A stretch of DNA of 42,099 bases from assembly GCA_001917905.1 (NCBI GenBank), contig MNEX01000080.1:1-42099 (forward strand), written 5' to 3'. Every line of letters starts with the position of its first letter. Within the stretch, counting starts at the first letter, position 1. The notes under the pieces were generated by a model. It was not told where the DNA came from, searched no databases, and saw only the letters and a program-made list of their open reading frames with translations. Below, in pieces: positions 1,441 through 41,344 of the stretch. This DNA is from Acidobacteria bacterium 13_1_40CM_65_14. GTDB taxonomy: Bacteria; Acidobacteriota; Vicinamibacteria; Vicinamibacterales; CAVVIG01. The position numbers were made by a program, and so were the translations under genes.

Positions 1441-2301
1441 ATGCGCACGCTGCTGATCTGCCACGACGACGCCCCTCTGGATCGCGCGGGGCTGGTGCGA
1501 TGGCTCGGCTCGTTCTCGACCTTCGCCGGCACGGTCGTTCTCCGCGAGCCGCGCGGCCGGCTGAAGAAGCGCATCAAGCGCGAGGTGTCGCGCGTCGGCG
1601 TCTGGCGGTTTCTCGACGTGTTGGCGTTCCGTTTGTATTACACGCTCGCGCAGGCAGCCGGCGACCGCGTCTGGGAGCAGCGCGAGCTCGCGCGACTGCG
1701 CGCCTGGTTTCCCGATCGCCCCGACGCGCCCGAGCTCGTCGTCTCGTCCCCCAACTCGCCTGAGGCTGAGGCGTTCATCCGCGAGCAGCAGCCTGATCTC
1801 GTGCTCGCGCGTTGCAAAACTCTTCTCAAGGAACAGATCTTCACCATCCCGGCGCTCGGCACGTACGTGATGCACCCGGGCATCTGTCCCGAGTACCGCA
1901 ACGCGCACGGCTGCTTCTGGGCGCGCGCGACCGGCGATCAGCAGAACGTCGGCATGACACTGCTGCGCATCGACAAAGGCGTCGACACGGGGCCGGTGTA
2001 CGGCTACTTCCGCGTGGACGCCGATCCGGCCGAGTCGCACGTCGTCACGCAGCACCGCGTCGTGCTCGAGCACCTCGACGCGATTCGCGACAAGCTGCTC
2101 GAGATCGAAGCCGGAACCGCTGAGCGCATCGTCACCGAGGGACGCCATTCGGCGACCTGGGGTCAGCCGTGGATGACCGCATTCCTGAAGATGGTCCGCG
2201 CGGGCAATCACGTTCGGCGACGTCCTGTTCTGGATACGCCGGAGCGCCACGGCGCGACGGCGTCAGGCGTGGGGGTGGGGCCCCACGCGTTTGAAAGATG
2301 A
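1441..2301 (+). CDS. Formyltransferase-fold protein with a repeat-derived C-terminal tail
   Basis: Related to the methionyl-tRNA/GAR/sugar-nucleotide formyltransferase superfamily. Residues around 140-185 carry the family signature HPGICPEYRNAHG followed by GMTLLRIDKGVDTGPV. The superfamily transfers a formyl group from 10-formyl-tetrahydrofolate. The position between algD and a polysaccharide deacetylase suggests a sugar-linked substrate, but this is inference. The ATG at 1441 is preferred because the upstream in-frame stretch is A element 1. The last 27 residues (260-286; RRRPVLDTPERHG and onward to GVGPHAFER) are translated P element, so the native C-terminus has been replaced or extended. 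The stop overlaps the next gene's start as ATGA (2298-2301), indicating translational coupling. Confidence 0.75.
   Translation: MRTLLICHDDAPLDRAGLVRWLGSFSTFAGTVVLREPRGRLKKRIKREVSRVGVWRFLDVLAFRLYYTLAQAAGDRVWEQRELARLRAWFPDRPDAPELVVSSPNSPEAEAFIREQQPDLVLARCKTLLKEQIFTIPALGTYVMHPGICPEYRNAHGCFWARATGDQQNVGMTLLRIDKGVDTGPVYGYFRVDADPAESHVVTQHRVVLEHLDAIRDKLLEIEAGTAERIVTEGRHSATWGQPWMTAFLKMVRAGNHVRRRPVLDTPERHGATASGVGVGPHAFER
2218..2289 (+). repeat. P element 1 (two hairpins)
   Basis: Hairpin 2 spans 2236-2263 with outer stem ACGCCG/CGGCGT, inner stem GCGC/GCGC and a four-base loop. Hairpin 1 spans 2267-2288 with an 8-bp stem GCGTGGGG/CCCCACGC. It encodes the tail of the formyltransferase. Confidence 0.9.
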
Positions 2302-3161
2302 CACCTGCCCTCATGTACCACGACGTCGTGCCGGCAGGCGCCGAGGACACGAGCGGTTTCCCCGGCCGCGATGCCGCGTTGTACAAGGTGACGCCCGAGT
2401 TGTTCGACGCGCACCTCGAGGCGATCCGCCATCTTTTTTTCACTGGCGCCGGGGCCCCACCCCCGGCGCGACCTGACGCTGACACCTCGCCTCGGATTTC
2501 CATGTCCTCGGCTCGGTGTGGCCGCAGGCGCTCCTCATCAGATCTGCCGACGATCACGTTCGATGACGGTGGGGCCAGCGCGATGACTGCCGCAGACGCG
2601 CTGGAGCGCCACGGATTCAACGGTCATTTCTTCATCACCGCGAACTACATCGGCACGCGCGGTTTTGTCACCGGGCAGAATCTTCGCGAGCTGCGCGAGC
2701 GCGGTCACGTGATTGGCAGCCATTCGTGTTCGCATCCGCTTCGCATGGGTCACTGCTCGTGGCCGCAGTTGGTCGACGAGTGGACGCGGAGTGGATCGAT
2801 GCTGTCCGAGATTCTCGGCGAGGACGTGAACGTCGCATCGGTTCCTGGCGGCGAGTTCGCGCCGCAGGTCGCCGAGGCGGCCGCGAGAGCGGGATTCACG
2901 CGGCTCTTCACGTCGGAGCCGACGACCGAGGCACGCCACGCGTTCGGCCTCACGCTCCTTGGCCGCTTCACGATTCAGCGATGGACCACGGCGGACACGG
3001 CCGCCGCGCTCGCCGCCGGCGAATGGCTCCCGCGCGCGCGGCAAGCCGTCGTGTGGAACGCGAAGAAGATCAGCAAGCGGCTTGGCGGCGAACGGTATCT
3101 GCAGCTCCGCAAACTTCTGCTCGGCCACGGGAACGAAGTGCGGTGGGGCGATCAGCGCTAG
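2298..3161 (+). CDS. Polysaccharide deacetylase (NodB-type) carrying an internal repeat insertion
   Basis: A carbohydrate esterase 4 type enzyme expected to remove N-acetyl groups from a cell-envelope or exported polysaccharide. It starts with PALMYHDVV. It has the metal-binding first motif TFDDGG and the second motif HSCSHP, matching the H-x3-H metal ligands. No signal peptide is visible. It is translationally coupled to the formyltransferase by ATGA. Residues 50-82, between EAIRHLFFT and LPTITFDDGG, are a diverged P element (GAGAPPPAR...) placed just before the catalytic motif. This is a junction where homologues should show no such segment. The frame is maintained through the insertion. 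Confidence 0.8.
   Translation: MTPALMYHDVVPAGAEDTSGFPGRDAALYKVTPELFDAHLEAIRHLFFTGAGAPPPARPDADTSPRISMSSARCGRRRSSSDLPTITFDDGGASAMTAADALERHGFNGHFFITANYIGTRGFVTGQNLRELRERGHVIGSHSCSHPLRMGHCSWPQLVDEWTRSGSMLSEILGEDVNVASVPGGEFAPQVAEAAARAGFTRLFTSEPTTEARHAFGLTLLGRFTIQRWTTADTAAALAAGEWLPRARQAVVWNAKKISKRLGGERYLQLRKLLLGHGNEVRWGDQR
2445..2543 (-). repeat. P element 2, diverged, inside the deacetylase gene
   Basis: Hairpin 1 is GCGCCGGGG/CCCCGGCGC (2446-2469), a compensated variant of the usual stem. A hairpin-2 equivalent at 2482-2519 has ACACC/GGTGT outer and GCC/GGC inner pairs flanking the same TC/TC bulge, with a longer loop. It is in the opposite orientation to the copies that encode VLDT. Confidence 0.65.
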
Positions 3162-3167
3162 CCGCTC

Positions 3168-3290
3168 GTATTGCGGATTGAGGACTGCGGAATGCGGATT
3201 GATCGCGGATTCAATCCACAATAAATCCGCAATCCGCAATCCTCAATCCACAATAAATCCGCAATCCGCAATCCTCAATCCGCAATGTCG
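3168..3290. repeat. Short-word inverted array W1
   Basis: Iterations of GCGGATTGAGGA-like words face their complement (AATCCGCAATCCTC). The right arm is itself duplicated in direct orientation (3219-3251 and 3250-3283 approximately). It separates the deacetylase from the amidohydrolase remnant. Confidence 0.85.
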
Positions 3291-3302
3291 AGGTGCGTAT
3301 AG

Positions 3303-3491
3303 GAGATCGGTCACAAGGGTTTCACGATCGATGCGCAGGCCATGGCCAAGGTGCTCTTCGACTTCGCCACGCACGCCGACTATCGAACGGCAGTGAAGAG
3401 GGAATTCGATGGGATCAAGGCGCTGTTCGGTGAGTATCAGGCGTCGTTGAAGAAGGTGTACACAGTGCCAACCGTGCCCGATCCGAAGTAG
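3303..3491 (+). pseudogene. C-terminal remnant of an M20 amidohydrolase (AbgB-like)
   Basis: A 62-codon open stretch without a start codon reads EIGHKGFTIDAQAMAKVLFDF and ends at TAG 3489-3491. The HKG...A..MA...L.D pattern is what I recognise from the C-terminus of aminobenzoyl-glutamate/peptidase M20 hydrolases. The catalytic and dimerisation domains are missing. The fragment begins immediately after W1, so the gene was probably truncated in connection with repeat insertion or deletion. The fragment is too short for a firm family call. Confidence 0.55.
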
Positions 3492-3492
3492 A

Positions 3493-3566
3493 AAGCAACC
3501 GCGGAGCACGCTGAGATCGCAGAGCGATCTTTTTCTGCGTTCTCTGCGAGCTCTGCGGTTGCTTTT
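3493..3566. repeat. A element 2
   Basis: Inverted array: the left arm begins AGCAACCGCGGAGCACGC, the right arm ends CTCTGCGGTTGCTTTT. It lies between the convergent M20 remnant and the SpoIID fusion gene, whose stop codon sits at the repeat edge. Confidence 0.85.
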
Positions 3567-7894: not shown

Positions 7895-7908
7895 CGAAAA
7901 GAAGAAGA

Positions 7909-7979
7909 CGATCGACGCAGAACTCGCAGAACCCGCAGAACAAGAATTTTCTGCGTGTTCAGCGGTTTCTGCGTTTAAC
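7909..7979. repeat. A element 4 between convergent genes
   Basis: The left arm CGCAGAACTCGCAGAACCCG faces a right arm of CTGCGTGTTC and TTCTGCGTTTAACG words. It includes the stop codon of the GMC oxidoreductase gene. Confidence 0.9.
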
Positions 7980-9570
7980 GTCGTGCCGGAAACCCGCGCG
8001 CGATTTCGTCTGCCGACCGCAGCGTGAGCGCGACGAAGGTCAGCGTGCCGTTCGTGCAGCCGCCGGTCGGTGTCGTCGGCGCACCGACGACGAACAGATT
8101 GGCATGATCGTGCGTGCGGCCGAAGCTGTCACACACACTCGTCGCGGGGTCGGATCCCATGCGGCAGCCGCCGCCGGGATGATCGAGGTAGTCGCCTTCG
8201 CTCGTGCCGGCGATCCGTCCGTTGCTCGCACGCGCGAGCGTGCCGAACACATTCAACACGTGCACCTTCGTCGCCGCCTCGCGCGCGAGCGTCGCCTCGT
8301 CGAAGTGATGCTCGATCGTCGGCATCGGATCGCCGTACCGATTCTTCTTCGACCCGTCGAGCGTCAGCCGGCTGTCGGCCGACGGATGCACGTCGACGTA
8401 CGCGCGCAAGCGCACCGAGCTCCCCTTGGTCCGCGATCGCCAGTCGGCCATCAGCTCGTCGCCGAGCAGCAGCTTCCCCTCCGGCGTACGGAGCCGCGGA
8501 TCGCGACCGGCGGAGCTCTCCCACACGCGAGTGTCGTGACGCACGAATGGCTTGTCGGCCGGGCACCGGAAGTACTCGCGCGAGATGAGGCTGTGCGTCA
8601 TGTTCTGGCCGGGGAATGTCTGGTCGTCGATGTTCGCGGTCGCCGAGATGAACCTGTGACCGTTCATGTATCGGCCGACCAGTCCGGAGCTGTTCGCGAG
8701 GCCGTTCGGGAACCGGGAGTTGGACGACAGTAAAAGAAGATGCGAGCTCCAGCAATAGCCGGACGCGATGACGAACGTCTTCGCGCGGTACTCGACCGGA
8801 TCGGTCGGGCGATCCTGATGAAAGCCCTGCGCGGCAACGACTGTCGGCCGTCGATCGTCGAGCACGAGTCGCCGCACGAGGGTGCGATCGTGCAACACGA
8901 TCTTCTTCGGCTCCATCAGCTGGCGAAACGTGAAATCGGGCGAGTAGCGCGCGCCCGACGGACACACCTCGCCGCACGTGTCGTACACGCAGCAGGCGCC
9001 GCGGCCGCCGAACGGCGTCAGGTTGCGCGCCATCGGCAGGCCGTCGAACTTCAGGCCGCTCTTCTCCGCCCACGCTTTCAGGATTTGCAGGTTGTAGGAG
9101 AGCGGGATCGGTCCCTGCGGGTACGGTTGCGATCGGCGATCGGCTGCGTACGCGCTCGGCTCGCCGCTCACGTTCAGACGGCGCTCGGCCTCGCAATAGT
9201 AGCGCTCGAGATCCTGCCATTCGATCGGCCAGTCGTACGCGAGCCCGTACATCGACTCGAGCCGCAGGTCCTCTTCTGAAAACCGATTGCACGCGCCGCC
9301 CCAGTGCAGCGCGAGGCCGCCGACCGCCATCGTCATGGAGATGATGCCGGCCGCCTGCTGATCCTCGATGTAGTCGTCGTGCCACGGATGCTCGCCGTAG
9401 TCGTTCGCGCGCTCGCGATAGCGGCCACGGTTCTGCGTGTCGAAAATCGATCGGCCGGCTTCGACGACAGTGACGTGGACGCCGGACCGAAGCTCGGAGA
9501 GCTTCTGGGCGAGCATCGCGGAGGTGATGCCGCCGCCGATGATGCAGATGTCGGTTTCGTGGACAGGCAT
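7975..9570 (-). CDS. GMC-family FAD oxidoreductase (sugar or alcohol dehydrogenase large subunit)
   Basis: The N-terminal dinucleotide fold DICIIGGGITSAMLAQKL binds FAD. The GMC-type C-terminus NLFVVGAPTTPTGGCTNGTLTFVALTLRSADEIA holds the active-site region. CCVYDTCGEVCPSGARYSPDF in the middle is a cysteine-rich segment. The arrangement resembles the large subunit of membrane-associated gluconate or fructose dehydrogenases. The small subunit is encoded upstream on the same strand. The ATG at 9570 is chosen because an in-frame extension to 9609 would be translated P element (MGVGPHAIRK). The partner cytochrome is not in the immediate neighbourhood. Confidence 0.8.
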   Translation of the reverse strand: MPVHETDICIIGGGITSAMLAQKLSELRSGVHVTVVEAGRSIFDTQNRGRYRERANDYGEHPWHDDYIEDQQAAGIISMTMAVGGLALHWGGACNRFSEEDLRLESMYGLAYDWPIEWQDLERYYCEAERRLNVSGEPSAYAADRRSQPYPQGPIPLSYNLQILKAWAEKSGLKFDGLPMARNLTPFGGRGACCVYDTCGEVCPSGARYSPDFTFRQLMEPKKIVLHDRTLVRRLVLDDRRPTVVAAQGFHQDRPTDPVEYRAKTFVIASGYCWSSHLLLLSSNSRFPNGLANSSGLVGRYMNGHRFISATANIDDQTFPGQNMTHSLISREYFRCPADKPFVRHDTRVWESSAGRDPRLRTPEGKLLLGDELMADWRSRTKGSSVRLRAYVDVHPSADSRLTLDGSKKNRYGDPMPTIEHHFDEATLAREAATKVHVLNVFGTLARASNGRIAGTSEGDYLDHPGGGCRMGSDPATSVCDSFGRTHDHANLFVVGAPTTPTGGCTNGTLTFVALTLRSADEIARGFPARR

Positions 9571-9589
9571 CTGAGTCTCTTTTCTTATG

Positions 9590-9666
9590 GCGTGGGGCCC
9601 CACCCCCACGCCTGACGCGCTCGCGGCGTAAACCGCTCGCGCGTATCAAGAACAGAACGTCTGCGA
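9590..9666 (-). repeat. P element 3
   Basis: Hairpin 1 at 9590-9611 (GCGTGGGG/CCCCACGC). Hairpin 2 at 9615-9644 with outer ACGCGC/GCGCGT and inner GCGG/CCGC around a six-base CGTAAA loop. It forms one arm of a composite with P element 4. Confidence 0.9.
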
Positions 9667-9681
9667 TCCCTCATCACCGCC

Positions 9682-9712
9682 GGCCGCGTGAGCGCCGAAG
9701 GCGCCCGCGGCC
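9682..9712. repeat. Central hairpin of the P3-P4 composite
   Basis: The stem is GGCCGCG (9682-9688) with CGCGGCC (9706-9712), and inside it GCGCC with GGCGC around a GAA loop. It sits midway between the two oppositely oriented P elements. Confidence 0.85.
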
Positions 9713-9720
9713 ATTGAAAG

Positions 9721-9777
9721 TTACGCCCGAGCGCTACGGCGCGAGGGCGTCAGCGCGTGGGGGTGGGGCCCCACGCG
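9721..9777 (+). repeat. P element 4, inverted relative to P element 3
   Basis: Hairpin 2 at 9723-9750 (ACGCCC/GGGCGT outer, GCGC/GCGC inner). Hairpin 1 at 9755-9776. It lacks the AGAACAGAACGTC end present in other copies, perhaps trimmed during formation of the composite. Confidence 0.85.
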
Positions 9778-9797
9778 ATACAAGAAAGAAAGCGGTT

Positions 9798-19321: not shown

Positions 19322-19465
19322 GAATGTAGCGCGACGGCTTTAGAGGTTGTGAAGGAATACCGACGTTGAACGCAGAACTCGCAGAACACGCAGAAAGACC
19401 TCAAGCATGTTTCTCTGCGGGTTCAGCGGTTTCTGCGTTGTACGTGATTTCTTCACGCGCTCTTT
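19322..19465. repeat. Nested composite repeat D-A7-D
   Basis: GTAGCGCGACGGCTTTAGAGG leads into A element 7 (19366-19443, arms CGCAGAACTCGCAGAACACG and GGTTTCTGCGTTG). It closes with CGTGATTTCTTCACGCGC and CTTTAGCC. The same architecture is found at 12440-12596. Confidence 0.85.
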
Positions 19466-26348: not shown

Positions 26349-29300
26349 TTAATAAAAATCGTGGGCGTCGAAGTCGATGTCGAGGCCGCGCATGCCCTGC
26401 ACCTGCTCGGCGCGGACCGACGTCACGCCGTCCTGGCTTTGCAGCACACCGTCGACGATCAGAAACGGCTCTTCGACGATGACGAGTCGATCGCGCGCGA
26501 ACAGATCGGGTCGGACGATGATGTTCGCAATGCCGGTTTCGTCCTCGAGCGTGAGGAAGACGAAGCCTTTCGCGGTCCCCGGACGCTGGCGCGTGATCAC
26601 CATGCCGGCGACGCGGACCCGGCGTCCCTGCCGCGTCGTGTAGAGATCGCACGCGCGCAGGATGCCGCGCGTCGCGAGATCGTCGCGGCGGAGCGCCATC
26701 GGATGGCGGCCGGCGGTCAGCCCCATGCCGGCGTAGTCGGCGACGAGGCGCTCGGCCTCGGTCATGGGTTTCAACGGACAACGGTCCACGACATTCAACG
26801 CAGAACTCGCAGAACCCGCAGAAATTTCTTGATCACAAGGCTCTGCGAGTTCCGCGGATTCTGCGTTGATCGTTGCGGACGCCGTAAACAACTCGCCGGA
26901 AGGTCGGACCGCGCGCTCGGCCTGCCAGAGCGCGGAGCGGCGGTCGTAGCCGAACGCGTTCAGCGCGCCGATATCGGCGAGGGTCACGACCTCGTCACGG
27001 CGGAGACCCGTGCGCGCGACGAGCTCGTCGAGCGATTTGAACCGGCGGCCGTTTGGTGTGGCCGCTGGTGCTTCGTGCGAGCAGACGTTGCAGAACAGAC
27101 CGCCGTTCGTCGTGCGCTCGAGCATCGACTGATCATCACAGCCGCACTTCGGACACCGCCAACGTTCTTTATTTGCGTGGGGCCCCACCCCCACGCCTGA
27201 CGCGCTCGGGCCGTTGCCCTCGCGCGTATCCAGAACAGAACGTCGCTGAAGGGCATCGGCGCAAACGCTTTCGATTCTCTTTCCGACCTCCTGTCGCAGG
27301 CCGCGCACGTACCGCAGCCCCAAACGGATCGCGCCGTCCGATTCGATCGTGCAGTTCCAGTCCGACACCTGCACGTCGATCGGATGAAAGCGGACGCCGC
27401 GGCGCTGCGCGTCCTTGACGAGCGTCGACGGATGATAGAACCCCATCGGCTGATTGTTGAGGAGCGCGGTGTAGAACGCGGCCGGGTAATGGACCTTCAA
27501 ATACGCGCTCGCGTACGCGAGCAGCGCGAAGCTCGCGGCGTGCGATTCGGGAAAGCCGTAGAGCGCAAACGAGGTGATCGACGTGATGATGGTCTCCGCC
27601 GCGTCGCCCGTAATCCCCTTCCGCGCCATGCCCTCGCGCAACTGCACCTCGATCTGCTGCATCCGCTTCTCGGATCGCTTGAAGCCCATCGCGCGCCGCA
27701 AATCCTCCGCCTGACCTCCGGTGAAGCCGGCGGCGACCATCGCCAATCGCAGCAGCTGCTCCTGGAACAGCGGCACGCCGAGCGTGCGCTTCAGGATCGG
27801 CTCGAGCGACGGATGCGGGTACTGCACCGGCTCACGTCCCGCGCGGCGATTCAGATACGGATGCACCATCTGCCCGACGATCGGTCCGGGCCGGATGATC
27901 GCCACTTCCACCACGAGGTCGTAGAACGTCGTCGGCTTCAAGCGCGGGAGTGTCGCCATCTGCGCGCGCGACTCGACCTGGAAGACGCCGATCGTGTCGG
28001 CCGCCTGCAGCATCTTGTAGACCGCGGGATCCTCGGGAAGATGCGCGAGGTCGATTTTTATTCCGCGTGGGGCCCCACCCCCACGCGCTGACACGCTCGG
28101 GCCGTGGCCCTCGCGTGTATCCAGAACAGGACGTCGTCGATTTTCATCGAGAGGCTCTTCCCATCCCGCCTGTCCTGCCCCTCCTGCCTGTCCTGCCCTT
28201 TCACCATTCACCAGCGCGAGCGAGTCCTGCAGCACCGCCATCATGCCGAGGCCGAGGAGATCGACTTTGACGATGCCCATGTCGGCGCAGTCGTCCTTGT
28301 CCCACTGGACGACGACGCGGCCGGGCATGCTCGCGTTTTCGAGCGGGACGACGGCGTCGAGCTGACCCTGGCAAATCACCATGCCGCCGGAGTGCTGGCC
28401 GAGATGGCGCGGCAAATCGAGCATCTCCTTCCAGAGCCGCGCGAACAGGCGCACGCGATCCGAATTCAGATCGAGCCCGACGGCCGAGAGCTGCCGCGGC
28501 AGCGTGTCGGCGGGATCGGCGAACTCGAACTGATTCATGATTTTCGCGAGCCGATCGATCTGCGCCAGATCGAAGCCGAGCACCTTCCCCACTTCGCGCG
28601 CCGCGCTGCGCCCGCGATAGGTGATCACATTCGCCGTCATTGCTGCTCTGGGCCCTTCGGGGGCCGCGCCCTGCCCGTGATTGTATTTTTCGTAGACGTG
28701 CTGGATGACCTCCTCGCGGCGATCGCCGCTCGGCAGATCGAGATCGATGTCGGGCCACTCGCCGCGCTCTTCCGACAAGAACCGCTCGAAGAGCAGATCC
28801 ATCCCGACCGGATCGACCGCGGTGATGCCGAGGCTGTAGCAGACGGCGCTGTTCGCCGCGCTGCCGCGTCCTTGCACGAGGATGTCGTGCTGCCGCGAAA
28901 AATTGACGATGTCCCAGACGATGAGGAAGTAGCCGGCGAGCTGGAGCTTCTCGATGAGATCGAGCTCGCGCGCGATTTGCGCGCGCGCCCGATCGTGATA
29001 CGGGCGATACCGCTCGCGGGCGCCGACCTCGGTGATTTTCCGCAGGAACGACGTCTGCGTCTCACCGGGCGGCACCGGGTAGTCGGGAAAGCGGTAGCCG
29101 AGATCCGCCATCGTGTACTGCAGGCGGTCGCCGAGCTCGCGCGTGCGCGCCACGGCGTCGGGATAATCGCGGAAGAGCTCCGCCATCTCGCCGGGCGGCT
29201 TGAGGTACCGCTCGGCGTTGGGCGCGAGCCGGCGTCCCGCGGTGGCGAGGTCGGTGTGATGGTGGATGCAGGTGAGCACGTCGAACAGCGGCCGCTCGGA

Positions 29301-30053
29301 CGGCGTCGCGAAGCGGACGCCGTTGGTCGCAATCGTCGGAACGCTGAAGGCCGACGCCAGCGCGACGAGCGCCTCGTTGTCGCGCTCCTCGTCGCGGCGG
29401 AAGTGGCGCTGCAGCTCGACGTACATATTCGCGCGGCCGAAGATCCCGACGAGGCGATCGAGCAAGCCGCCGACGCCGTGGCGCCGGCCGTCGAGCGCCG
29501 CGCGCCCCGCCAGCGCGACCAGACCGGTCGTGCAGCCGACCAGCTCCTCGAGCGCGAGCGCGCCTTCGCCCTTCGGCGCGCGCATTTTCATCCGGGTGAT
29601 GAGACGACACAGATTGCGATAGCCCTCTTGACTTTCACATAACACCGGCAACAACCAGGTTGCTTCAGCGCTCGGCCAACTTTTTTTACTGGCCTGGGGC
29701 CCCACCCCCAGGCCTGACGCGCTCGCGCCGTCGCGCTCGCGCGTATCTAGAACAGAACGTCGCTGATCGCGGTCCACTCCCAGGCCTGACACGCTCGGGC
29801 CGTAGCCCTCGCGTGTATCCAGAACAGAACGTCGCAGATCGTCTTGTGCGATGGTCAGCTCGGCGCCGACGATCGGGCGAATGCCGGCGGCTTGCGCCGC
29901 TTTATGGAAGCGCGGCGCGCCGTAGACGCCGTCGCGATCGAGCAGCGCGAGCGTGGAGTAGCCGAGGTCGGCGGCCCGATCGACGAGCGCCTCGGGGAGC
30001 GACGCGCCTTGCAGAAAGCTGAAGGCCGACGCAGTGTGCAGTTCGACATACAC
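26349..30053 (-). CDS. dnaE2: Error-prone DNA polymerase III alpha subunit with in-frame repeat insertions
   Basis: 1234 residues. The PHP-domain start YVELHTASAFSFLQGAS is typical of DnaE2. Catalytic aspartates are in PDIDLD (D435, D437, D439 region) and VKVDLLGLGMM (D598). The C-terminal OB-fold includes VRVAGMVITRQRPGTAKGFVFLTLEDE. DnaE2 performs mutagenic lesion bypass with ImuA and ImuB. At least four in-frame repeat segments interrupt it. They are residues about 70-126 (two tandem P elements), 614-664 (W7 plus P), 933-963 (P) and 1056-1089 (A element 8). Residues 963-994 add a two-CxxC zinc-ribbon-like stretch. Removing these leaves about 1030 residues, the usual family length. GTG start at 30053. 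Activity is plausible but untested. Confidence 0.88.
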   Translation of the reverse strand: MYVELHTASAFSFLQGASLPEALVDRAADLGYSTLALLDRDGVYGAPRFHKAAQAAGIRPIVGAELTIAQDDLRRSVLDTREGYGPSVSGLGVDRDQRRSVLDTRERDGASASGLGVGPQASKKSWPSAEATWLLPVLCESQEGYRNLCRLITRMKMRAPKGEGALALEELVGCTTGLVALAGRAALDGRRHGVGGLLDRLVGIFGRANMYVELQRHFRRDEERDNEALVALASAFSVPTIATNGVRFATPSERPLFDVLTCIHHHTDLATAGRRLAPNAERYLKPPGEMAELFRDYPDAVARTRELGDRLQYTMADLGYRFPDYPVPPGETQTSFLRKITEVGARERYRPYHDRARAQIARELDLIEKLQLAGYFLIVWDIVNFSRQHDILVQGRGSAANSAVCYSLGITAVDPVGMDLLFERFLSEERGEWPDIDLDLPSGDRREEVIQHVYEKYNHGQGAAPEGPRAAMTANVITYRGRSAAREVGKVLGFDLAQIDRLAKIMNQFEFADPADTLPRQLSAVGLDLNSDRVRLFARLWKEMLDLPRHLGQHSGGMVICQGQLDAVVPLENASMPGRVVVQWDKDDCADMGIVKVDLLGLGMMAVLQDSLALVNGERAGQAGGAGQAGWEEPLDENRRRPVLDTREGHGPSVSARGGGAPRGIKIDLAHLPEDPAVYKMLQAADTIGVFQVESRAQMATLPRLKPTTFYDLVVEVAIIRPGPIVGQMVHPYLNRRAGREPVQYPHPSLEPILKRTLGVPLFQEQLLRLAMVAAGFTGGQAEDLRRAMGFKRSEKRMQQIEVQLREGMARKGITGDAAETIITSITSFALYGFPESHAASFALLAYASAYLKVHYPAAFYTALLNNQPMGFYHPSTLVKDAQRRGVRFHPIDVQVSDWNCTIESDGAIRLGLRYVRGLRQEVGKRIESVCADALQRRSVLDTREGNGPSASGVGVGPHANKERWRCPKCGCDDQSMLERTTNGGLFCNVCSHEAPAATPNGRRFKSLDELVARTGLRRDEVVTLADIGALNAFGYDRRSALWQAERAVRPSGELFTASATINAESAELAEPCDQEISAGSASSALNVVDRCPLKPMTEAERLVADYAGMGLTAGRHPMALRRDDLATRGILRACDLYTTRQGRRVRVAGMVITRQRPGTAKGFVFLTLEDETGIANIIVRPDLFARDRLVIVEEPFLIVDGVLQSQDGVTSVRAEQVQGMRGLDIDFDAHDFY
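26795..26872. repeat. A element 8 inside dnaE2
   Basis: Arms AACGCAGAACTCGCAGAACC and GCGGATTCTGCGTTGATCG. In frame, it encodes TINAESAELAEPCDQEISAG in DnaE2. Confidence 0.9.
27175..27248 (-). repeat. P element 6 inside dnaE2
   Basis: Hairpin 1 GCGTGGGG/CCCCACGC, hairpin 2 with outer ACGCGC/GCGCGT and inner GGGC/GCCC around CGTT, then ATCCAGAACAGAACGTCGC. Encodes QRRSVLDTREGNGPSASG in DnaE2. Confidence 0.92.
28065..28139 (-). repeat. P element 7 inside dnaE2
   Basis: Hairpin 2 outer ACACGC/GCGTGT and inner GGGC/GCCC around CGTG. One base longer between the hairpins (CGCTGAC), so hairpin 1 is read in another frame (ARGGGAPRG). Confidence 0.92.
28155..28203. repeat. Direct-word repeat W7 inside dnaE2
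   Basis: CCTGTCCTGCC and CCTCCTGCC iterated, adjacent to P element 7. It encodes ERAGQAGGAGQAGWEEP in DnaE2. Confidence 0.7.
29692..29767 (-). repeat. P element 8 inside dnaE2
   Basis: Hairpin 1 stem GCCTGGGG/CCCCAGGC, a compensated change from the usual GCGTGGGG. Hairpin 2 inner stem GCGC/GCGC around CGTC. Confidence 0.92.
29772..29838 (-). repeat. P element 9, tandem with element 8
   Basis: Lacks the first arm of hairpin 1. Hairpin 2 outer ACACGC/GCGTGT, inner GGGC/GCCC around CGTA. A tandem copy, in the same frame as element 8. Confidence 0.9.
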
Positions 30054-30070
30054 GACGAAGACTCGGCGAT

Positions 30071-30568
30071 TTACATTTCATCAGCCGATGGCCCGTACGG
30101 CCCGGGGACGGGAATGTTGTTCAGGCGCAGGTACACCCCGAGCTGCGCGCGGTGATGCACGAGATGGTTGAAGCAGTAGCTGCGGACGCAGGTGTAGCGC
30201 GGCAGGGTGAAGAAGACGTTGGCGCCCTGCCGGAGGGTCCATGGCACGAAGTAGTCGGCGTCGGGTCTGGCGAGCATCGGGCGCACCGCGGCGACGTTTG
30301 CGTCGAACCAGGACAGCAGCTCGGCATTCGATTTCGCGGCCTTCGTCATTTCTTCCATCGGCACGCTCGCCAGATCGAACTCGGTCTGGTTCATCGTCGG
30401 GTCGGTCCATTTGATCATGTTCACGATGTGGCTCCCGAGATCGCCCATCGAGAACGACTTGTCATGCGGCTTCCAGCCGAACTTGTCGTCGGGCACGCGT
30501 TCGAGCACGCGCCGCGTCATGGCCATTTCCTGATCGAACTCGGGCAGCAGCAATTCGGCAATCGTCAT
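30071..30568 (-). CDS. DinB-family metal-binding protein
   Basis: 165 residues. DinB/YfiT-type four-helix bundle. GSHIVNM and NHLVHHRAQLGVYLRLNNIP give histidines matching the metal-binding triad. These proteins are thiol-S-transferase-like or of unknown function. ATG at 30568, 13 bases after imuB and 17 bases before dnaE2, so it is embedded in the mutagenesis operon. Its presence may be operon-specific, as DinB-superfamily genes are often damage inducible. Confidence 0.78.
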   Translation of the reverse strand: MTIAELLLPEFDQEMAMTRRVLERVPDDKFGWKPHDKSFSMGDLGSHIVNMIKWTDPTMNQTEFDLASVPMEEMTKAAKSNAELLSWFDANVAAVRPMLARPDADYFVPWTLRQGANVFFTLPRYTCVRSYCFNHLVHHRAQLGVYLRLNNIPVPGPYGPSADEM

Positions 30569-30581
30569 CGCGTCGCTCCTC

Positions 30582-32399
30582 TCAATCCACAATCGCATCG
30601 ATGAACCACGCGTCGGTGTCGCGGTCCTGGAAAATGCGGTACACGGCGCCGTCGGTGAGTGCGACATCCCACTCGTCGCGGTTCCAACTTTTTTCATTTG
30701 CGCGGGGCCCCACCCCCACGCCTGACGCCCTCGCGCCGTTGCGCTCGGGCGTATCTAGAACAGAACGTCGCTGATCTTCTCCCGTCCCTCCGACCCACCA
30801 CTCACCGGACGTTCTCCACGGACCGGCGCATTGCACGACGCTTCCACCCACGAAGCCGCGGCGATCGGTGGTGACGCGGACCGGACGGCCGTTGTCGATC
30901 GCCACGCGCGCCGGCACTGGTTGGCGACATCGACGCAGCGCGCTTACAACATCTTCTTTTACGTCGCGTGGGGCCCCACCCCCACGCGCTGACGCGCTCG
31001 GACCGTCGTCCTCGCGCGTATCCAGAACAGGACGTCGCAGATCCGTGTCAGATACGTGGGATGTTTCTCTCCGTTCTCTGCGTGTTCCGCGGTTGCTTTC
31101 GTGCTCGGTCTTGAACGGCGCCATCGCGAACGCACCGGGACGATACGAATCGACGACTGCGGGCGTGCCGAGACGGTCCTGTCCCATCAACGCACTGAGA
31201 CGCGCGAGGAGCGTCGACAGCTGCTCGGGCGTCGGCTGCGCGCGCGTGAAGAGCGTGTGCTGCAGCACGCGGCCCGGCGTCGGATCGATGACGATGGCGA
31301 CGCGATCGATCGCGGCGGCCGGCGGATGCGATTCGAGATCCAGCAGCGCGAGCGTGCGCAGCGTCCGCACGTCGCGCATCGGCGTCGGCAGCTCGAGGCG
31401 CCGCGCGTGCGAATCTTTGGTGACGAGCCGCAGCAGCACGTGCAGCACCGCGGCCCCGCGATCGCGCCGCTCGAGACGCGTGGACAGCGGCTCGAGCAGC
31501 CGCGTGAGGACGAACGACAGCGGCTCGAGCCCTTCAATCGGCCACTCCAGTTCCAGTGACGACTCGAACCGCTCGTCCTCGAGCGTCGGGACGAGCGGCC
31601 GGACATCGTCTCCACGCGCGAGGGCCTGCCAGATGAGTGCCTGACGTCCGAGGCGCGACGCGAGATCCGCGGATGGCAGCGCCGCTAACTCTCCCAGTGT
31701 GCGAATGCCCCACTGGCTGAAAGTTTGAAGTTTGAAGTCTGAAGTTTGAACGTCAGACTTCAGACTTCCGACTTCACACTTTTCGAGAATGTTGATCGGT
31801 AGAGGCGCCAGTGCGTCAGCCTCGGCGCCGCACGGAACAACCGTCACGCCCGGCCGCGCGTGCGCGAGGATGACCGCGGCCATGCGCGTGCCGGCGACCG
31901 CCACGTGGACGCGGACGCCGCGCGACGCCGCTTCGCGCCGGAGCTCTTCGCCGATGGTTTTCCAAACAGATCGCGGGGCCCCAACGGCACCCCAACGCGG
32001 CTGCCGCGTTGGGGACCCCGCCCCCCCGCTCGCCAACGCCCTCGCGCCGTTTTCCAACACTCGCGGGGCCCCACCCCCGCTCGCCTCGCTCGCGCCTTCG
32101 CGCTCGCTCGAGCCGCAGGCGCTGCGCTCGGGCGTATCCAGAACAGAACGTCGCTGAAACAAGCGCTCGAGCCCGCTGACGTCGATCGACACAAGATCGT
32201 CGCGATGACACTCGTAGCGCGGGGAGAATTCCTGCGCGATCGCCGCCAACGTTTCTGCACGCGCGTGGGGCCCCACCCCCACGCGTTCTCGCGGGGCCCC
32301 ACCCCCGCTCGCTGACGCCTCCCACGCTTCGCTGTCGCTCGCGTGGGGGGCGTGGCCGCAGGCGCTAGGCGCAGATGGTCGATAAAGGCACGCGTACAT
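30582..32399 (-). CDS. imuB: ImuB, inactive Y-family polymerase homologue, with five repeat insertions
   Basis: 605 residues. Core matches: FSPRYECHRDDLVSIDVSGLERLF, GEELRREAASRGVRVHVAVAGTRMAAVILAHA, SQWGIRTLGELAALPSADLASRLG. ImuB is a Y-family homologue lacking the catalytic acidic residues, which recruits DnaE2 and the beta clamp. Five segments are repeat-derived: residues about 8-48, 82-148, 202-226, 430-485 and 538-571. The residual core is about 385 residues. The start at 32399 overlaps the 3' end of imuA by 35 bases. No clamp-binding motif could be assigned with confidence; repeats may have displaced it. Confidence 0.82.
   Translation of the reverse strand: MYACLYRPSAPSACGHAPHASDSEAWEASASGGGAPRERVGVGPHARAETLAAIAQEFSPRYECHRDDLVSIDVSGLERLFQRRSVLDTPERSACGSSEREGASEASGGGAPRVLENGARALASGGAGSPTRQPRWGAVGAPRSVWKTIGEELRREAASRGVRVHVAVAGTRMAAVILAHARPGVTVVPCGAEADALAPLPINILEKCEVGSLKSDVQTSDFKLQTFSQWGIRTLGELAALPSADLASRLGRQALIWQALARGDDVRPLVPTLEDERFESSLELEWPIEGLEPLSFVLTRLLEPLSTRLERRDRGAAVLHVLLRLVTKDSHARRLELPTPMRDVRTLRTLALLDLESHPPAAAIDRVAIVIDPTPGRVLQHTLFTRAQPTPEQLSTLLARLSALMGQDRLGTPAVVDSYRPGAFAMAPFKTEHESNRGTRRERRETSHVSDTDLRRPVLDTREDDGPSASARGGGAPRDVKEDVVSALRRCRQPVPARVAIDNGRPVRVTTDRRGFVGGSVVQCAGPWRTSGEWWVGGTGEDQRRSVLDTPERNGARASGVGVGPRANEKSWNRDEWDVALTDGAVYRIFQDRDTDAWFIDAIVD
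30700..30776 (-). repeat. P element 10 inside imuB
   Basis: Hairpin 1 here is GCGCGGGG against CCCCACGC, one C-A mismatch (uncompensated). Hairpin 2 outer ACGCCC/GGGCGT, inner GCGC/GCGC around CGTT. Confidence 0.9.
30966..31043 (-). repeat. P element 11 inside imuB
   Basis: Hairpin 2 inner stem GGAC/GTCC around CGTC, outer ACGCGC/GCGCGT. A double base change relative to the GGGC/GCCC copies preserves pairing. Confidence 0.92.
31060..31102. repeat. A element 9 (half) inside imuB
   Basis: Right-arm words CTCTGCGTGTTCCGCGGTTGC without a clear left arm. Adjacent to P element 11, encoding ESNRGTRRERRE. Confidence 0.6.
31721..31791. repeat. Inverted array W4 inside imuB
   Basis: GAAGTTTGAAGTCTGAAG words opposite CTTCAGACTTCCGACTTC words. 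In frame, encoding EVGSLKSDVQTSDFKLQTF. Confidence 0.8.
31970..32157 (-). repeat. Nested P/G repeat cluster inside imuB
   Basis: GCGGGG hairpin 1 copies, one G hairpin (CCCCAACGCGG-CTG-CCGCGTTGGGG at 31990-32014) and an extended hairpin 2 variant with GCCGCAGGCGCTG. It ends in ATCCAGAACAGAACGTCGC. It encodes about 65 residues of ImuB without a stop. Confidence 0.8.
32258..32360 (-). repeat. Double P cluster near the imuB start
   Basis: GCGTGGGG/CCCCACGC hairpin followed at once by GCGGGG/CCCCGC hairpin, then GC-rich sequence ending in GTGGCCGCAGGCGC. Encodes ImuB residues about 8-48. Confidence 0.8.
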
Positions 32400-33336
32400 C
32401 GTCTACTCCGCGTGGGGCCCCACCTTTTCTTATTGCGCCGGGGACCCCACCCCCGTCGCAGTTGCTCGGCGCGTTTGCGCCTCGCAACGGCTCAAGGCTG
32501 TCACGCGCTGACGCGCTCGGAACATTTCCTTGGCTCTCGGGGCCCCACCCCCGCTCGCTCGGGCCGCAGGCGCTGTCCTCGCACGTATCCAGAACAGAAC
32601 GTCGCAGCGTGGCCTCGCATGAACGCCATCGCGCGCGAATGACGCGCGCCTCCATGTCGAGCCCATCGAACAACCGTGGCGTAGCCCTCAACCCTAAGCC
32701 CTCAGCCCTTGTGAGCCGCAGCGTGAGTCCAGCGGAACTACGTGCCATCGACTCGGACCCCACGAGCACGCCCGCCGTCTGCTGACTGCCTTCGATGAGG
32801 CGCTGCAGCCGCATCCACGTGGTGAACGGCAGGCGGCGGATGGCGTCCATCGGCGCCTCGCCGACGTCGAACGCGACGATGCCGAAGTTGCCCGCCTGCA
32901 GGACGAGCGTGAACGCGCGAATCGCCTGTTCGACGGCGCGCTGATTCAGATCGCGGCACAGGCCGGGATTGCAGACGACGTGGCCGCGGACCCACAGGAG
33001 GCGATCGAGCTGGACGCCGGCGGCTTCGGCGGACGCCACGTCGAGCATGTCGAGCGCATCGACCAGCGCGACGAGCTCGCCGCGCGCGGTGGCCGCCGCC
33101 AGCATCTGCAGCAGCAGGCTCGTGCGCCCGGAGGATCGCGGTCCGACGATCTCCGAGAGTTGTCCGCGCGGAAACCCGCCGCTGAGCCGTGCGTCTAAGG
33201 CCGTGTGCCCGGTCGGCGCGCACACGTACTCGTCGGGCATTCCCGCGGGATCGAGCGGTGGCAGCGCCGTCGTCAGCGTGCGATCGAGGCAGTGCGTGCG
33301 GAGCAGCGATTCGAGGTCGGCGCGTGCGAGCGGCAT
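32365..33336 (-). CDS. imuA: ImuA, RecA-like mutasome protein with repeat-derived C-terminus
   Basis: 323 residues. RecA-like core with Walker-A-like EIVGPRSSGRTSLLLQML, in which arginine replaces the lysine, and ELVALVDALDMLDVASAEAAGVQLDRLLWVRG. ImuA, with ImuB and DnaE2, makes the damage-induced mutagenic translesion complex. The native protein seems to end near residue 242 (ARVIRARWRSCEAT). The last 80 residues (RRSVLDTCEDSACGPSERG... to STICA) are translated repeats, and they overlap the imuB start. First gene of the operon; a promoter is proposed at 33370-33398. Confidence 0.8.
   Translation of the reverse strand: MPLARADLESLLRTHCLDRTLTTALPPLDPAGMPDEYVCAPTGHTALDARLSGGFPRGQLSEIVGPRSSGRTSLLLQMLAAATARGELVALVDALDMLDVASAEAAGVQLDRLLWVRGHVVCNPGLCRDLNQRAVEQAIRAFTLVLQAGNFGIVAFDVGEAPMDAIRRLPFTTWMRLQRLIEGSQQTAGVLVGSESMARSSAGLTLRLTRAEGLGLRATPRLFDGLDMEARVIRARWRSCEATLRRSVLDTCEDSACGPSERGWGPESQGNVPSASARDSLEPLRGANAPSNCDGGGVPGAIRKGGAPRGVDDVRVPLSTICA
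32410..32607 (-). repeat. P/S repeat cluster forming the ImuA tail
   Basis: A half hairpin 1 (GCGTGGGG), a GCGCCGGGG variant, the second copy of repeat S (32452-32522), and a GGGG-CCCC hairpin leading to ATCCAGAACAGAACGTCGC. It is read in frame as the C-terminal 80 residues of ImuA. Confidence 0.8.
32683..32714. repeat. Possible short direct-word repeat in imuA
   Basis: CCCTCAACCCTAAGCCCTC words iterate within the C-terminal half of imuA, encoding EGLGLRATP. Could be native sequence. Confidence 0.35.
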
Positions 33337-34774: not shown

Positions 34775-34776
34775 CC

Positions 34777-37430: not shown

Positions 37431-37477
37431 TTGCGTCGCCGTTCCTCGACGCAGACGGCAACAAGAAAGATTAGGAA

Positions 37478-38503: not shown

Positions 38504-39639
38504 CGCCTACCTCTTCTCACTGCGGCGGGGCCCCACGGCACCCCAACGCGGCTGCCGCGTTGGGACCCCGCCACGGCACCCCAACGCGGCTGCCGCGTTG
38601 GGGACTGGAGGATGCCGGTGGTGTTTCGCTTCGGCACGAAGCCGACCGGAATCAGCGCGACTTCCTTCATCGACTTGATGTCGACGACGGACACGTCGTT
38701 GGTCACGGGGTTGGCGACGTAGGCCTTCTTGCCATCCGGCGTGAGCGTCACCCACCCGGCGCCCTTTCCACCGAGAAACACGGTCCCGATCACGTTCAGG
38801 TCAGGTAACGAGTACGAGTACAGGGCGTTGTTCAACCGGCTGCAGACCACCAGCGTCTTCTGATCGGAGGTGACGGCCATCCCATGAGACGGATCCGAAC
38901 CCTCCGGAACCGTCGATCGCCCCGGAGGCAAATCCGGGTTCTTGATCCGCTTGATTTCCTTGTGCGTCGCAAAGTCGACGACCGCGAATCCGTTGAACCC
39001 GGTCAGTTGCGTGAACAGCCATTTGGTCGATCCGTCGGGATTGGCGGAGAACGTCATCGGACGGATGCCCAAGTCCATGTCCAACGTCCACGCGGGTTCT
39101 TCCGTCGTCGCGTCGAACACGTTGATCGTTTTTCCTTGAATCGAGCCGGCCACGACGTACTTGCCGTCAGGCGTGACATAGGCGTTGTGGATGGTGCCCT
39201 TCGTCGGCAGCGTCTTCACGCGTTGGAGAGACGCAGTGTCGATGACGTCCACGCCGCCCGGCGCCTGGATGATCCCCACGTACACGCGCTTCCCACTCCG
39301 GCCGATCGCGAGATTGTTGGGATGGCCGCTCAGTGGAATCTGTTTGACCACCTTGAGTGTCTTGGCGTCGACGACGTCGAGCGTGCTGAGCGCTTCGTCA
39401 CTGATGTAGATGCGGCTGCCATCGGGTGCGATCGCCGCACCATGATTGACCTCGATGCCGTCAATCTGTCCGACGACTTTGTTCGTCTCGGGATCGATGA
39501 TGTGAACGTTATCGCCTGCGCTGTTGGTCTGAACGATCACGACTTTGTGCGCGGCGCGCGCGGGTGAGGCGGCCCACGCACACACCGCGATCGCCGTCGC
39601 GGCTCCGAGACACCAACGAGACGTCTGTCTGGTCATCAT
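38500..39639 (-). CDS. YVTN-type beta-propeller protein with repeat-derived C-terminus
   Basis: 379 residues. Signal peptide, then 40-residue blades typical of YncE/YVTN proteins (VHIIDPETNKVVGQIDG, LDVVDAKTLKVVKQIPLSGHPNNLAIG, GWVTLTPDGKKAYVANPVTNDVSVVDIKSMKEVALIPVG). Extracytoplasmic; function unknown, possibly a scaffold with the neighbouring haem protein. Residues 344-379 (SPTRQPRWGAVAGSQRG and on) are two translated G hairpins, which extend the protein past its likely natural end (GFVPKRNTTG). Confidence 0.8.
   Translation of the reverse strand: MMTRQTSRWCLGAATAIAVCAWAASPARAAHKVVIVQTNSAGDNVHIIDPETNKVVGQIDGIEVNHGAAIAPDGSRIYISDEALSTLDVVDAKTLKVVKQIPLSGHPNNLAIGRSGKRVYVGIIQAPGGVDVIDTASLQRVKTLPTKGTIHNAYVTPDGKYVVAGSIQGKTINVFDATTEEPAWTLDMDLGIRPMTFSANPDGSTKWLFTQLTGFNGFAVVDFATHKEIKRIKNPDLPPGRSTVPEGSDPSHGMAVTSDQKTLVVCSRLNNALYSYSLPDLNVIGTVFLGGKGAGWVTLTPDGKKAYVANPVTNDVSVVDIKSMKEVALIPVGFVPKRNTTGILQSPTRQPRWGAVAGSQRGSRVGVPWGPAAVRRGRR
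38541..38603. repeat. Two tandem G hairpins
   Basis: CCCCAACGCGG-CTG-CCGCGTTGGGG at 38579-38603, and the same with one fewer G at 38541-38564. Flanked by GGGGCCCC. Another copy is at 31990-32014. Confidence 0.9.
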
Positions 39640-39641
39640 GT

Positions 39642-40094: not shown

Positions 40095-40190
40095 CGTGCC
40101 TCCGTGGAAGCGACGCTTCACTGCCGTGGTATGACGGGGGTCAGGTTATACCTCGGGCCGACGAGGTGCAACAGTAAGCTACGAATCTCT

Positions 40191-40919
40191 TCACGCGAGC
40201 GCTCGCGAGAACATGTAGACGCCCAGTGCGAGCACCAGCAGCGCCACGAGTCTCCGGAACAGACGCGGTGGAATCCGCTTCAGGATCCGCTCGCCGGCGA
40301 TCGTGCCGGCGACGACGCCGGCCGTCGCGACGATGATCGTCGGCGCGAGCTGCATGAGGCGGCGACCATCAGTCACGACGTACACGGGCATTCGCGCCGC
40401 GTCGACAATCAACCCGATGGCGGTGGCGGTCGCGACAAACGCCGCAGGCGACAGGTCGTACCCGAGCAGTGCTGCGGATCGAACGCCGCCCTGGTTGCCC
40501 ACCAACCCGCCGAGTAATCCAGACGCGGCACCGGCAATCCAACCCGTCGTCCGGCCAAACCGCAGGCGGTCGGACACACCGGTCAGGCCGGCGAGACCGA
40601 CGAACACCAGCAGGGCGGCGAAGACGACGATCAGAAAAGGAGAAGTCGCGTACCGCTGCAGCACGGCTCCGGTCAGTCCACCGGCGGCGCTCATCACACC
40701 GAACGTCTTCAGCACGCGGCAACTGGTGTCGCGCCGCATTCTCCAGAACCGCACCGCGGTCGCCACGACATGCGGAATGGAAACGGCGGCGACGGCGAGG
40801 CGCATGTCGACGTGCGTGTTGAACAGCGGCGTCAGGATGCTGCCGATGCCGAATCCGGCGACCGATGCGATGGCGCCGGCGGCGACCGATGCGACGGCGA
40901 TGAGGGTCGTGAATCCCAC
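40191..40919 (-). CDS. TauE/SafE-family permease
   Basis: 242 residues, about eight hydrophobic segments with AGAIASVAGFGIGSILTPLF at the start and GLLGGLVGNQGGVRSAALLGYDL in the middle, typical of the TauE/SafE family (sulfonate/sulfite exporters and similar). The substrate is not predictable. GTG at 40919 was chosen because it lies five bases after the DUF190 stop. The longer upstream frame is shadow sequence of DUF190. Confidence 0.75.
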   Translation of the reverse strand: MGFTTLIAVASVAAGAIASVAGFGIGSILTPLFNTHVDMRLAVAAVSIPHVVATAVRFWRMRRDTSCRVLKTFGVMSAAGGLTGAVLQRYATSPFLIVVFAALLVFVGLAGLTGVSDRLRFGRTTGWIAGAASGLLGGLVGNQGGVRSAALLGYDLSPAAFVATATAIGLIVDAARMPVYVVTDGRRLMQLAPTIIVATAGVVAGTIAGERILKRIPPRLFRRLVALLVLALGVYMFSRALA

Positions 40920-40924
40920 GCGGT

Positions 40925-41263
40925 CTACGTTCGGCCGGGTCGATACAGAAGGACTTCCGCGCGCTCGAGAGTGATCAAGCCGTCGCCGACCATCTGCTCG
41001 AGGTCGGGCATGAACGCTTCGATCTTGTCGGGCGCGTCGACGATTTCGATCACGATGGGCAGATCCTGCGAGAGCTCCAGCAGCTTGGCGGTGTGAATGC
41101 GGCTGTGGGCGCCGAAGCCCATGAAGCCTTTGATGACCGTCGCGCCGGCGAGGCCGCGCTTGCGCGCCTCGACCACGATCGCTTCGTAGAGCGGCTTCCC
41201 GTGCCAGCGGTCCGCTTCGCCGATGAAGATCCGCAGCAGCTTGCCTTCGGTTGGAATAGTCAT
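40925..41263 (-). CDS. DUF190 family protein
   Basis: 112 residues. EGKLLRIFIGEADRWHGKPLYEAIVVEARKRGLAGATVIKGFMGFGAHSRIHTAKLLELSQDLPIVIEIVD is the DUF190 signature, a PII-like ferredoxin fold. Genes of this family often neighbour crcB, as here, and may regulate fluoride export. ATG at 41263. Confidence 0.85.
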   Translation of the reverse strand: MTIPTEGKLLRIFIGEADRWHGKPLYEAIVVEARKRGLAGATVIKGFMGFGAHSRIHTAKLLELSQDLPIVIEIVDAPDKIEAFMPDLEQMVGDGLITLERAEVLLYRPGRT

Positions 41264-41272
41264 TCTTTACTC

Positions 41273-41344
41273 GCGCGGGGCCCCACCCCCGCGCCTGACG
41301 CCCTCGCGCCGTAGCGCTCGGGCGTATCCAGAACAGAGCGTCAC
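41273..41344 (-). repeat. P element 15 between DUF190 and crcB
   Basis: Hairpin 1 GCGCGGGG/CCCCGCGC, with both arms changed relative to GCGTGGGG. Hairpin 2 at 41298-41325 with outer ACGCCC/GGGCGT and inner GCGC/GCGC around CGTA. It occupies the gap between two co-directional genes. Confidence 0.92.

What the first reader, a model, noticed from the sequence alone, without database searches (positions are those of the whole stretch)
2218..41344. A two-hairpin interspersed element whose copies covary like a structured RNA
At least ten copies with hairpin 2 (2218, 9590, 9721, 27175, 28065, 29692, 29772, 30700, 30966, 41273) share a second hairpin with a constant layout. It has a six-pair outer stem, a fixed TC/TC internal bulge, a four-pair inner stem and a CGTN loop. 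The stems differ between copies but stay paired. Outer stems are ACGCGC/GCGCGT, ACGCCC/GGGCGT, ACACGC/GCGTGT and ACGCCG/CGGCGT. Inner stems are GGGC/GCCC, GCGC/GCGC, GGAC/GTCC and GCGG/CCGC. Hairpin 1 also shows paired changes (GCGTGGGG, GCCTGGGG, GCGCGGGG with matching partners). This is strong evidence that the folded form, in RNA or single-stranded DNA, is selected or is copied by the mobilising machinery. I know of no described family with this structure. Whole-gene mobility is inferred.
Basis: seen in the sequence. Interest (0 to 1): 0.92.

Follow-up and report, generated by a model that had tools for sequence, protein, structure and literature searches.

The report
Folded genomic repeat translated inside proteins
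A soil bacterium carries well over a hundred copies of a ~95-base sequence that folds into two hairpins; copies sit just before genes or inside genes, where they appear to be read as an extra stretch of protein, so one small repeat keeps both a fold and a readable peptide.

Summary
All ten copies have the hairpin; a covariance model finds at least 138 matches in this genome, a MAG whose closest DnaE2 relatives are soil Acidobacteriota group 6. In 162 copies from five genomes the stems stay paired through two-sided changes.

(1) Fourteen copies lie inside open reading frames, among them DnaE2, UvrC, UvrA, biotin ligase and threonine synthase, and 14 of 14 are read in one frame, giving RRSVLDTRE..GASASGVGVGPHA..K; an Era-like gene is a partial exception. 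UvrC of two genera shares the insertion, with compensated stem changes that alter amino acids. (2) Other copies are mostly sense-oriented just before a start codon: 75 of 106 have an ATG 6-17 nt past hairpin 1, against 15 of 162 controls.

Best read as a new family of protein-coding palindromic repeat. It works like Rickettsia palindromic elements and intragenic REPs but fails some of their defining features. No target duplications or terminal inverted repeats and no linked Y1 transposase were found. The mobiliser is unknown.

The parts
2210..2304 (+). full copy; upstream formyltransferase-like ORF 1252-2301 reads into it in frame A and stops at its end; the ORF starting at 2298 (polysaccharide deacetylase-like) begins 9 nt after hairpin 1
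9574..9670 (-). full copy, TTTACG loop subtype; hairpin 1 ends 19 nt before the ATG of a GMC-oxidoreductase-like gene
9697..9792 (+). copy with an alternative 5' tail (..GCGGCCATTGAAAGTT) that several other copies also have; downstream gene antisense
27159..27253 (-). full copy read in frame A inside the DnaE2-like ORF 26349-30053
28049..28144 (-). full copy read in frame A inside the DnaE2-like ORF
29676..29770 (-). full copy read in frame A inside the DnaE2-like ORF
29769..29842 (-). truncated tandem copy (hairpin 2, half of hairpin 1) inside the DnaE2-like ORF, same frame
30684..30778 (-). full copy in frame A near the C-terminus of ORF 30582-32399 (ImuB-like by my reading; no Pfam match at E<=1e-3)
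30950..31045 (-). full copy in frame A in the same ORF
32047..32161 (-). degenerate composite copy in the same ORF
32519..32612 (-). degenerate composite copy
41257..41351 (-). full copy between two co-directional genes: the upstream one (CrcB-like, my reading) stops at the element's 5' TGA, the downstream ATG is 9 nt after hairpin 1; a copy lies before the same gene in G016

Best explanation
A family of ~95-base non-autonomous mobile repeats of Vicinamibacterales. Sense-strand anatomy: 5' tail GACGTTCTGTTCTNGAT; hairpin 2 (six pairs, tandem G.A, four pairs, NACG loop); CAG linker; hairpin 1 (about 8 pairs, GTGGGG loop); A-rich 3' tail, roughly GANTAARAAA. Shown: the fold is maintained by paired changes, also in copies inside genes; copies are mostly co-oriented with the genes called around them; they sit just before start codons or inside ORFs; intragenic copies are read in one of the three frames (one partial exception). 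Inferred: insertion spreads the element; copies persist where harmless, namely before an ATG (where their own A-rich tail stands next to the start codon) or in protein loops in the one frame that gives a hydrophilic linker. Inferred and weakest: it is copied or moved as a folded single strand, perhaps by a HUH-type enzyme, because it has hairpins near both ends but neither terminal inverted repeats nor target duplications.
For: Copy number. Covariation: in 162 copies each hairpin-2 pair is Watson-Crick in 97.5-100%; 57 same-branch paired changes over all pairs against a null mean of 4.9 and maximum of 12 in 1000 placements; on A3 98.3% of cells paired against 86.3% shuffled, covariation score 0.296 against 0.096, 0 of 500 shuffles. 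Tandem G.A: GA/GA becomes GC/GC on both sides in 7 copies, all from G016. Frame: 14 of 14 intragenic copies in frame A, although frame A holds a stop in 74 of 116 testable copies (B 57, C 63). Alignments to solved structures break at the insert in UvrA, threonine synthase, ROK kinase and biotin ligase (the second biotin-ligase segment is weak). UvrC insertion shared by two genera, in frame. 13 intragenic copies keep 129 of 129 hairpin-2 pairs; the other 149 keep 1477 of 1485. Orientation between co-directional genes: 36 sense, 3 antisense. ATG 6-17 nt after hairpin 1: 75 of 106. No TSD or TIR.
Against: Mobility is not shown: no clean filled/empty DNA pair was found, because relatives carry other filler in the loops examined. 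No Y1 transposase is linked in the 12 of 23 such loci examined; G002, G012 and G013 have model matches but no Y1 gene, while G006 and G026, without matches, have three and four. Other transposase families were not searched. Translation is inferred from open frames and coding potential, not from protein data. An Era-like gene is entered in another frame and reaches frame A after a 1-base deletion in the stem. One of the 14 ORFs (L124) has no Pfam match and may not be a gene. No excess of G.U over A.C cells (14 against 9), so RNA is not favoured over single-stranded DNA. In hairpin 1 the two outermost pairs are mismatched or missing in 39-40 of 162 copies.
Confidence: 0.62

Rival explanations
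1. A mobile 5' leader: the element works as a cis-acting RNA (two hairpins plus an A-rich ribosome-entry region) that sets translation of the following gene; intragenic copies are by-products.
For: Strong co-orientation and short distance to the ATG; nine loci shared in position between genomes, about one expected if positions were independent (the expectation is my estimate from ~5,500 genes); compensated differences at those loci (14 two-sided, 3 other in hairpin 2).
Against: Copies at shared sites are hardly more alike (0.76-0.90) than random pairs (mean 0.81); at three further loci the copies lie in opposite orientation; an ATG also follows 10 of 16 copies whose downstream gene is called antisense. 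Functions and expression of the downstream genes were not surveyed.
Confidence: 0.22
2. Neutral sequence kept palindromic by DNA-level repair (arm-to-arm template switching) without selection on the fold.
For: Two-sided changes with very few intermediates are what arm correction would give; no G.U excess.
Against: The non-palindromic GA/GA internal loop persists in most copies (GA on the 5' side in 150 of 162) although correction would erase it; loops and the 5' tail are conserved too.
Confidence: 0.1
3. A REP-type element spread by a RAYT (tyrosine HUH transposase).
For: Hairpins, no TSD, genome-wide scatter; one Y1_Tnp gene in this genome.
Against: In 12 Y1_Tnp loci the model gives only weak hits (E 0.002-0.05) at L253 and L244, from genomes without model matches; presence of the gene and of the repeat do not track each other in 20 genomes; no unpaired GTAG or CGTC tag.
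Confidence: 0.06

Closest known systems
Rickettsia palindromic elements (RPE)
   Same: About 100-150 bp, palindromic, many copies, inserted in frame in conserved proteins, encode a characteristic peptide (PMC10969869 passages; PMC2229807 passages).
   Different: RPEs are described there as long stem-loops with terminal inverted repeats in Rickettsia; this one has two separate hairpins with conserved unpaired tails in a soil acidobacterium. Sequence relation to RPEs was not tested.
GTAG/CGTC-tagged REPs, including intragenic REPs
   Same: Short hairpins with complementary stem variants; intragenic in repair genes including DnaE2 and uvr genes (PMC3733652, parts 1-5 of 8 read).
   Different: REPs are 20-40 bp single hairpins with an unpaired tag and lie mostly downstream of genes; here the CGT of CGTC is in the stem, there are two hairpins, and the usual position is just upstream of genes.
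IS200/IS605 ends and their non-autonomous derivatives
   Same: Subterminal hairpins on one strand near both ends (IS608, PMC5934647 passages); no duplications or terminal inverted repeats found here.
   Different: No transposase gene between the ends, none linked; guide/cleavage pairing not demonstrated.
BOX elements of pneumococcus
   Same: Modular composite repeats with stable RNA folds, some forming ORFs or lying before genes (PMC3049150 passages).
   Different: Other modules by name and organism (sequences not compared here); the passage seen says the pneumococcal repeats are over-represented between convergent genes.

Membership tests
Rickettsia palindromic element | in-frame insertion in conserved protein genes with a conserved peptide | tested here: met
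Rickettsia palindromic element | long stem-loop with terminal inverted repeats | tested here: not met
   two separate hairpins; no excess of inverted matches between flanks
GTAG/CGTC REP | 20-40 bp single hairpin with unpaired GTAG or CGTC tag at one end | tested here: not met
   ~95 bp, two hairpins; CGT of CGTC is the paired 3' end of the outer stem
GTAG REP | RAYT gene flanked by the repeat | tested here: not met
   (12 of 23 Y1_Tnp loci examined, incomplete genomes)
MITE (DDE type) | terminal inverted repeats and target-site duplication | tested here: not met
   longest direct match mean 3.65 against 3.67 shuffled, inverted 3.19 against 3.50 (152 copies; borders approximate)
IS200/IS605 non-autonomous | subterminal hairpins on one strand, no TSD | tested here: met
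IS200/IS605 non-autonomous | fixed target tetranucleotide left of the element and guide pairing | tested here: inconclusive
   left border shows only a loose (T/G)C(G/T)G preference
Rfam RNA family | match to a curated covariance model | tested here: not met
   0 matches at gathering over the window and at E<=1 over 29600-31100

The most novel reading that the evidence does not exclude
A mobile element under two simultaneous constraints: its sense-strand fold is preserved by compensatory changes even within protein-coding genes, at the cost of amino-acid changes (UvrC of two genera), while one reading frame is kept acceptable as a protein linker, and its 3' end doubles as a portable translation-initiation leader when it lands before a gene.
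Probability: 0.25. Interest if true: 0.82.

Novelty: new variant of a known kind. Interest (0 to 1): 0.6.

Why it matters
In-frame palindromic repeats are best known from intracellular Rickettsia and Wolbachia (the latter from a reference title seen). Here a soil lineage has a family with a defined, covarying two-hairpin fold, one preferred reading frame and a preferred place before start codons, and other repeat families fill the same protein loops in relatives. That makes testable how a mobile element reconciles a fold needed for copying or expression with a peptide tolerated by conserved proteins, and what moves repeats that have no linked transposase.

Tried and rejected
Rejected or unproductive: (1) Translational bypass or splicing of the intragenic copies: not needed, since all 14 are open in one frame. 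(2) RAYT linkage. (3) Retro-copying by a resident reverse transcriptase: no RVT_1 match at E<=1e-3 in this 87%-complete genome. (4) Target duplications. (5) A clean empty site: DnaE2, threonine synthase and UvrC loops of relatives hold other filler, 18 of 30 loci matched my loop pattern and 12 did not, and of the 18 only G000 and G016 have this element (carriers G012 and G015 have other filler there). (6) RNA against DNA from wobble pairs: 14 G.U against 9 A.C cells, undecided. (7) Rfam.

Rows dropped: the 162-copy set is the best 97 of the 150 aligned A2 rows (one search found 167 matches) and the best 65 of the 78 A3 rows; lower-scoring, mostly composite or truncated copies were left out. 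The frame test used the 116 of 150 rows with a recognisable tail; the Era-like gene was skipped there for that reason and found. The 66-of-85 haplotype count leaves out 12 of 97 copies with rare stems. The tree-based null is my own coarse parsimony version on a tree from the same 72 columns, not R-scape; some non-partner column pairs with few changes also reach 0.67-0.75 there.
Full report
Check of the observation. Nine have both hairpins; 29772 is truncated. The window is contig C181 of a 6.33 Mb MAG. The tail pattern is found 52+52 times in the genome against 1 for the reversed control, and a covariance model from the ten copies finds 138 matches at E<=1e-3, a lower bound. The closest DnaE2 relatives among the 80 loci kept are soil MAGs titled Acidobacteria gp6, and others titled Vicinamibacterales. 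In 396 genomes drawn from the phylum, four of the same family have the tail (119, 26, 5 and 1 matches; the last with a mismatch) besides two single one-mismatch hits outside it; G016 and G013, which have copies, were not in that draw. The model matches 20 of 60 nearer genomes, own genome included, some only weakly.

Fold. In 162 copies (97 of this genome, 65 of G016, G015, G013 and G012) the ten pairs of hairpin 2 are Watson-Crick in 97.5-100% of copies each, with exchanges such as GC/AT (129/32), GC/CG (121/38), CG/GC (130/27 and 137/24). The two outermost pairs of hairpin 1 are mismatched or missing in 39-40 copies; its other six are Watson-Crick in 96-99%. The internal loop is GA/GA in most; in 7 copies both sides are GC. 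On A3, 98.3% of cells pair (shuffled 86.3%), 13 pairs have two-sided changes and the covariation score is 0.296 (shuffled 0.096; slid registers at most 0.044). On a tree of the 160 distinct sequences I counted 57 same-branch paired changes against a mean of 4.9 and a maximum of 12 under random placement. There are 66 distinct haplotypes among 85 copies, so modules have been reassorted, though not freely: outer and inner stems are associated in both sets (p=0.0005), outer stem and hairpin 1 (p=0.001) and inner stem and hairpin 1 (p=0.03) in this genome, inner stem and loop base in the other genomes (p=0.01), while outer stem and loop base are independent in both. Both strands fold; the sense strand is 4-9 kcal/mol more stable as RNA in the four copies tried.

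Inside genes. The DnaE2-like ORF of 1234 aa runs through four copies and the neighbouring 605-aa ORF through several. Of 150 aligned copies, 116 could be tested for frame; 14 lie in ORFs with coding potential on both sides, and all 14 are in frame A, which translates as RRSVLDTRERDGASASGVGVGPHA..K (consensus). Frame A is not the most open frame in general: it holds a stop in 74 of 116 copies, B in 57, C in 63. Frame B gives a Trp/Phe-containing peptide; selection for a tolerated linker is my inference. Pfam names hosts as Lhr-type helicase, amidase, ABC transporter, UvrC, biotin ligase, methyltransferase, threonine synthase, ROK kinase and UvrA; L124 has no match and L116 was not scanned. Alignments to solved structures break at the insert in UvrA (364-412), threonine synthase (431-473), ROK (196-253) and biotin ligase (240-268, second segment weak). 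An Era-like gene (my reading) is a partial exception: entered in another frame, with a one-base deletion in the stem that brings it to frame A. Further copies read in frame A are at a C-terminus or in other genomes.

Orthologous copies. Flanks of copies from other genomes match flanks of a copy here in the same orientation at nine loci (65 copies against 97), seven on both sides, one of these with about 600 extra bases downstream, and two on the downstream side only; at three further loci the copies are in opposite orientation. At the nine loci hairpin 2 differs by 14 two-sided and 3 other changes and hairpin 1 by 8 and 1, but the copies are hardly more alike (0.76-0.90, ten pairs) than random pairs (mean 0.81), so repeated insertion or conversion cannot be excluded. 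UvrC is the clearest: both genera carry the insert between the same conserved segments, in frame, G016 with an additional unit, and the inner stem (GGGC/GCCC against GCGC/GCGC) and hairpin 1 differ by compensated changes that alter the peptide. In other relatives that loop is as short as four residues beyond the conserved arginine or holds unrelated peptides.

Before genes. Of 162 copies, 11 are intragenic by this call's test; of the rest 106 have a co-directional gene downstream, 16 an antisense one and 29 none detected; between co-directional genes 36 are sense and 3 antisense. An ATG lies 6-17 nt after hairpin 1 in 75 of 106, in 25 of 45 of the none-or-antisense class, in 2 of 11 intragenic copies and in 15 of 162 controls. 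The ATG is therefore partly a feature of the element's end or target, and not only of selection for genes. Gene calls rest on a simple codon model of mine, not on a standard gene finder.

Mechanism. No excess of direct repeats or terminal inverted repeats flanks 152 copies. One Y1 transposase gene and no RVT_1 reverse transcriptase were found here; the Y1 gene does not track the repeat across 20 genomes and the model has no strong match near 12 of the 23 Y1 matches found. Other transposases were not searched. Copying of a folded single strand is thus an inference from anatomy, compared with IS608 as described in PMC5934647 (passages).

Known work. PMC3733652 (parts 1-5 of 8 read) describes REPs inside genes, many in repair genes and including DnaE2. 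PMC10969869, PMC2229807 and PMC3049150 were seen in passages, PMC8266576 in abstract and outline. The listings showed no description of this repeat in Acidobacteriota; only that open-access library was searched. Verdict: a real, new family; a variant of a known kind.

Noticed in passing
window 7897-7990, 19361-19445, 26789-26873: A second palindromic repeat family (AACGCAGAACTCGCAGAAC..TTCTGCGTT). The copy at 26789 is read in frame in the DnaE2-like ORF (NAESAELAEP..SAGSASSALN); several relatives show similar peptides at the same place and G001 has many DNA matches to it.
   Followed up: partly
UvrC loop, L346-L375: One loop of UvrC holds different in-frame repeat-like peptides in different genera (for example SGFGIRDS..PIPNPQSR, LVVSLSNHE) and is only a few residues long in others: a shared insertion-tolerant loop.
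   Followed up: partly
window 31976-32018, 38527-38569, 38565-38607: A third GC-rich palindromic repeat (GGGCCCCAACGGCACCCCAACGCGGCTGCCGCGTTGGGGACCC), three copies.
   Followed up: no
L085:4553-4647, L063:2540-2634, L080:1226-1319, L123:2843-2933: Hairpin 1 also occurs behind a different 5' module (variants of CTGAGCGGATAGTCG..AATCA), often close before an ATG, so elements look modular.
   Followed up: partly
window 9697-9792; L082:3009-3103; L105:3002-3098; L096:4222-4315: A second type of 5' tail (..GCGGCCAYTGAARGTT) in front of the same hairpin 2.
   Followed up: no
L257, L268, L271 (G016): Three pairs of copies in divergent orientation with 34, 42 and 27 bases between them, possibly serving divergent genes or moving as dimers.
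   Followed up: no
window 3170-3286: A perfect 32-bp tandem duplication of an AATCCGCAATCC-type unit, with 88% complementary arms around it.
   Followed up: no
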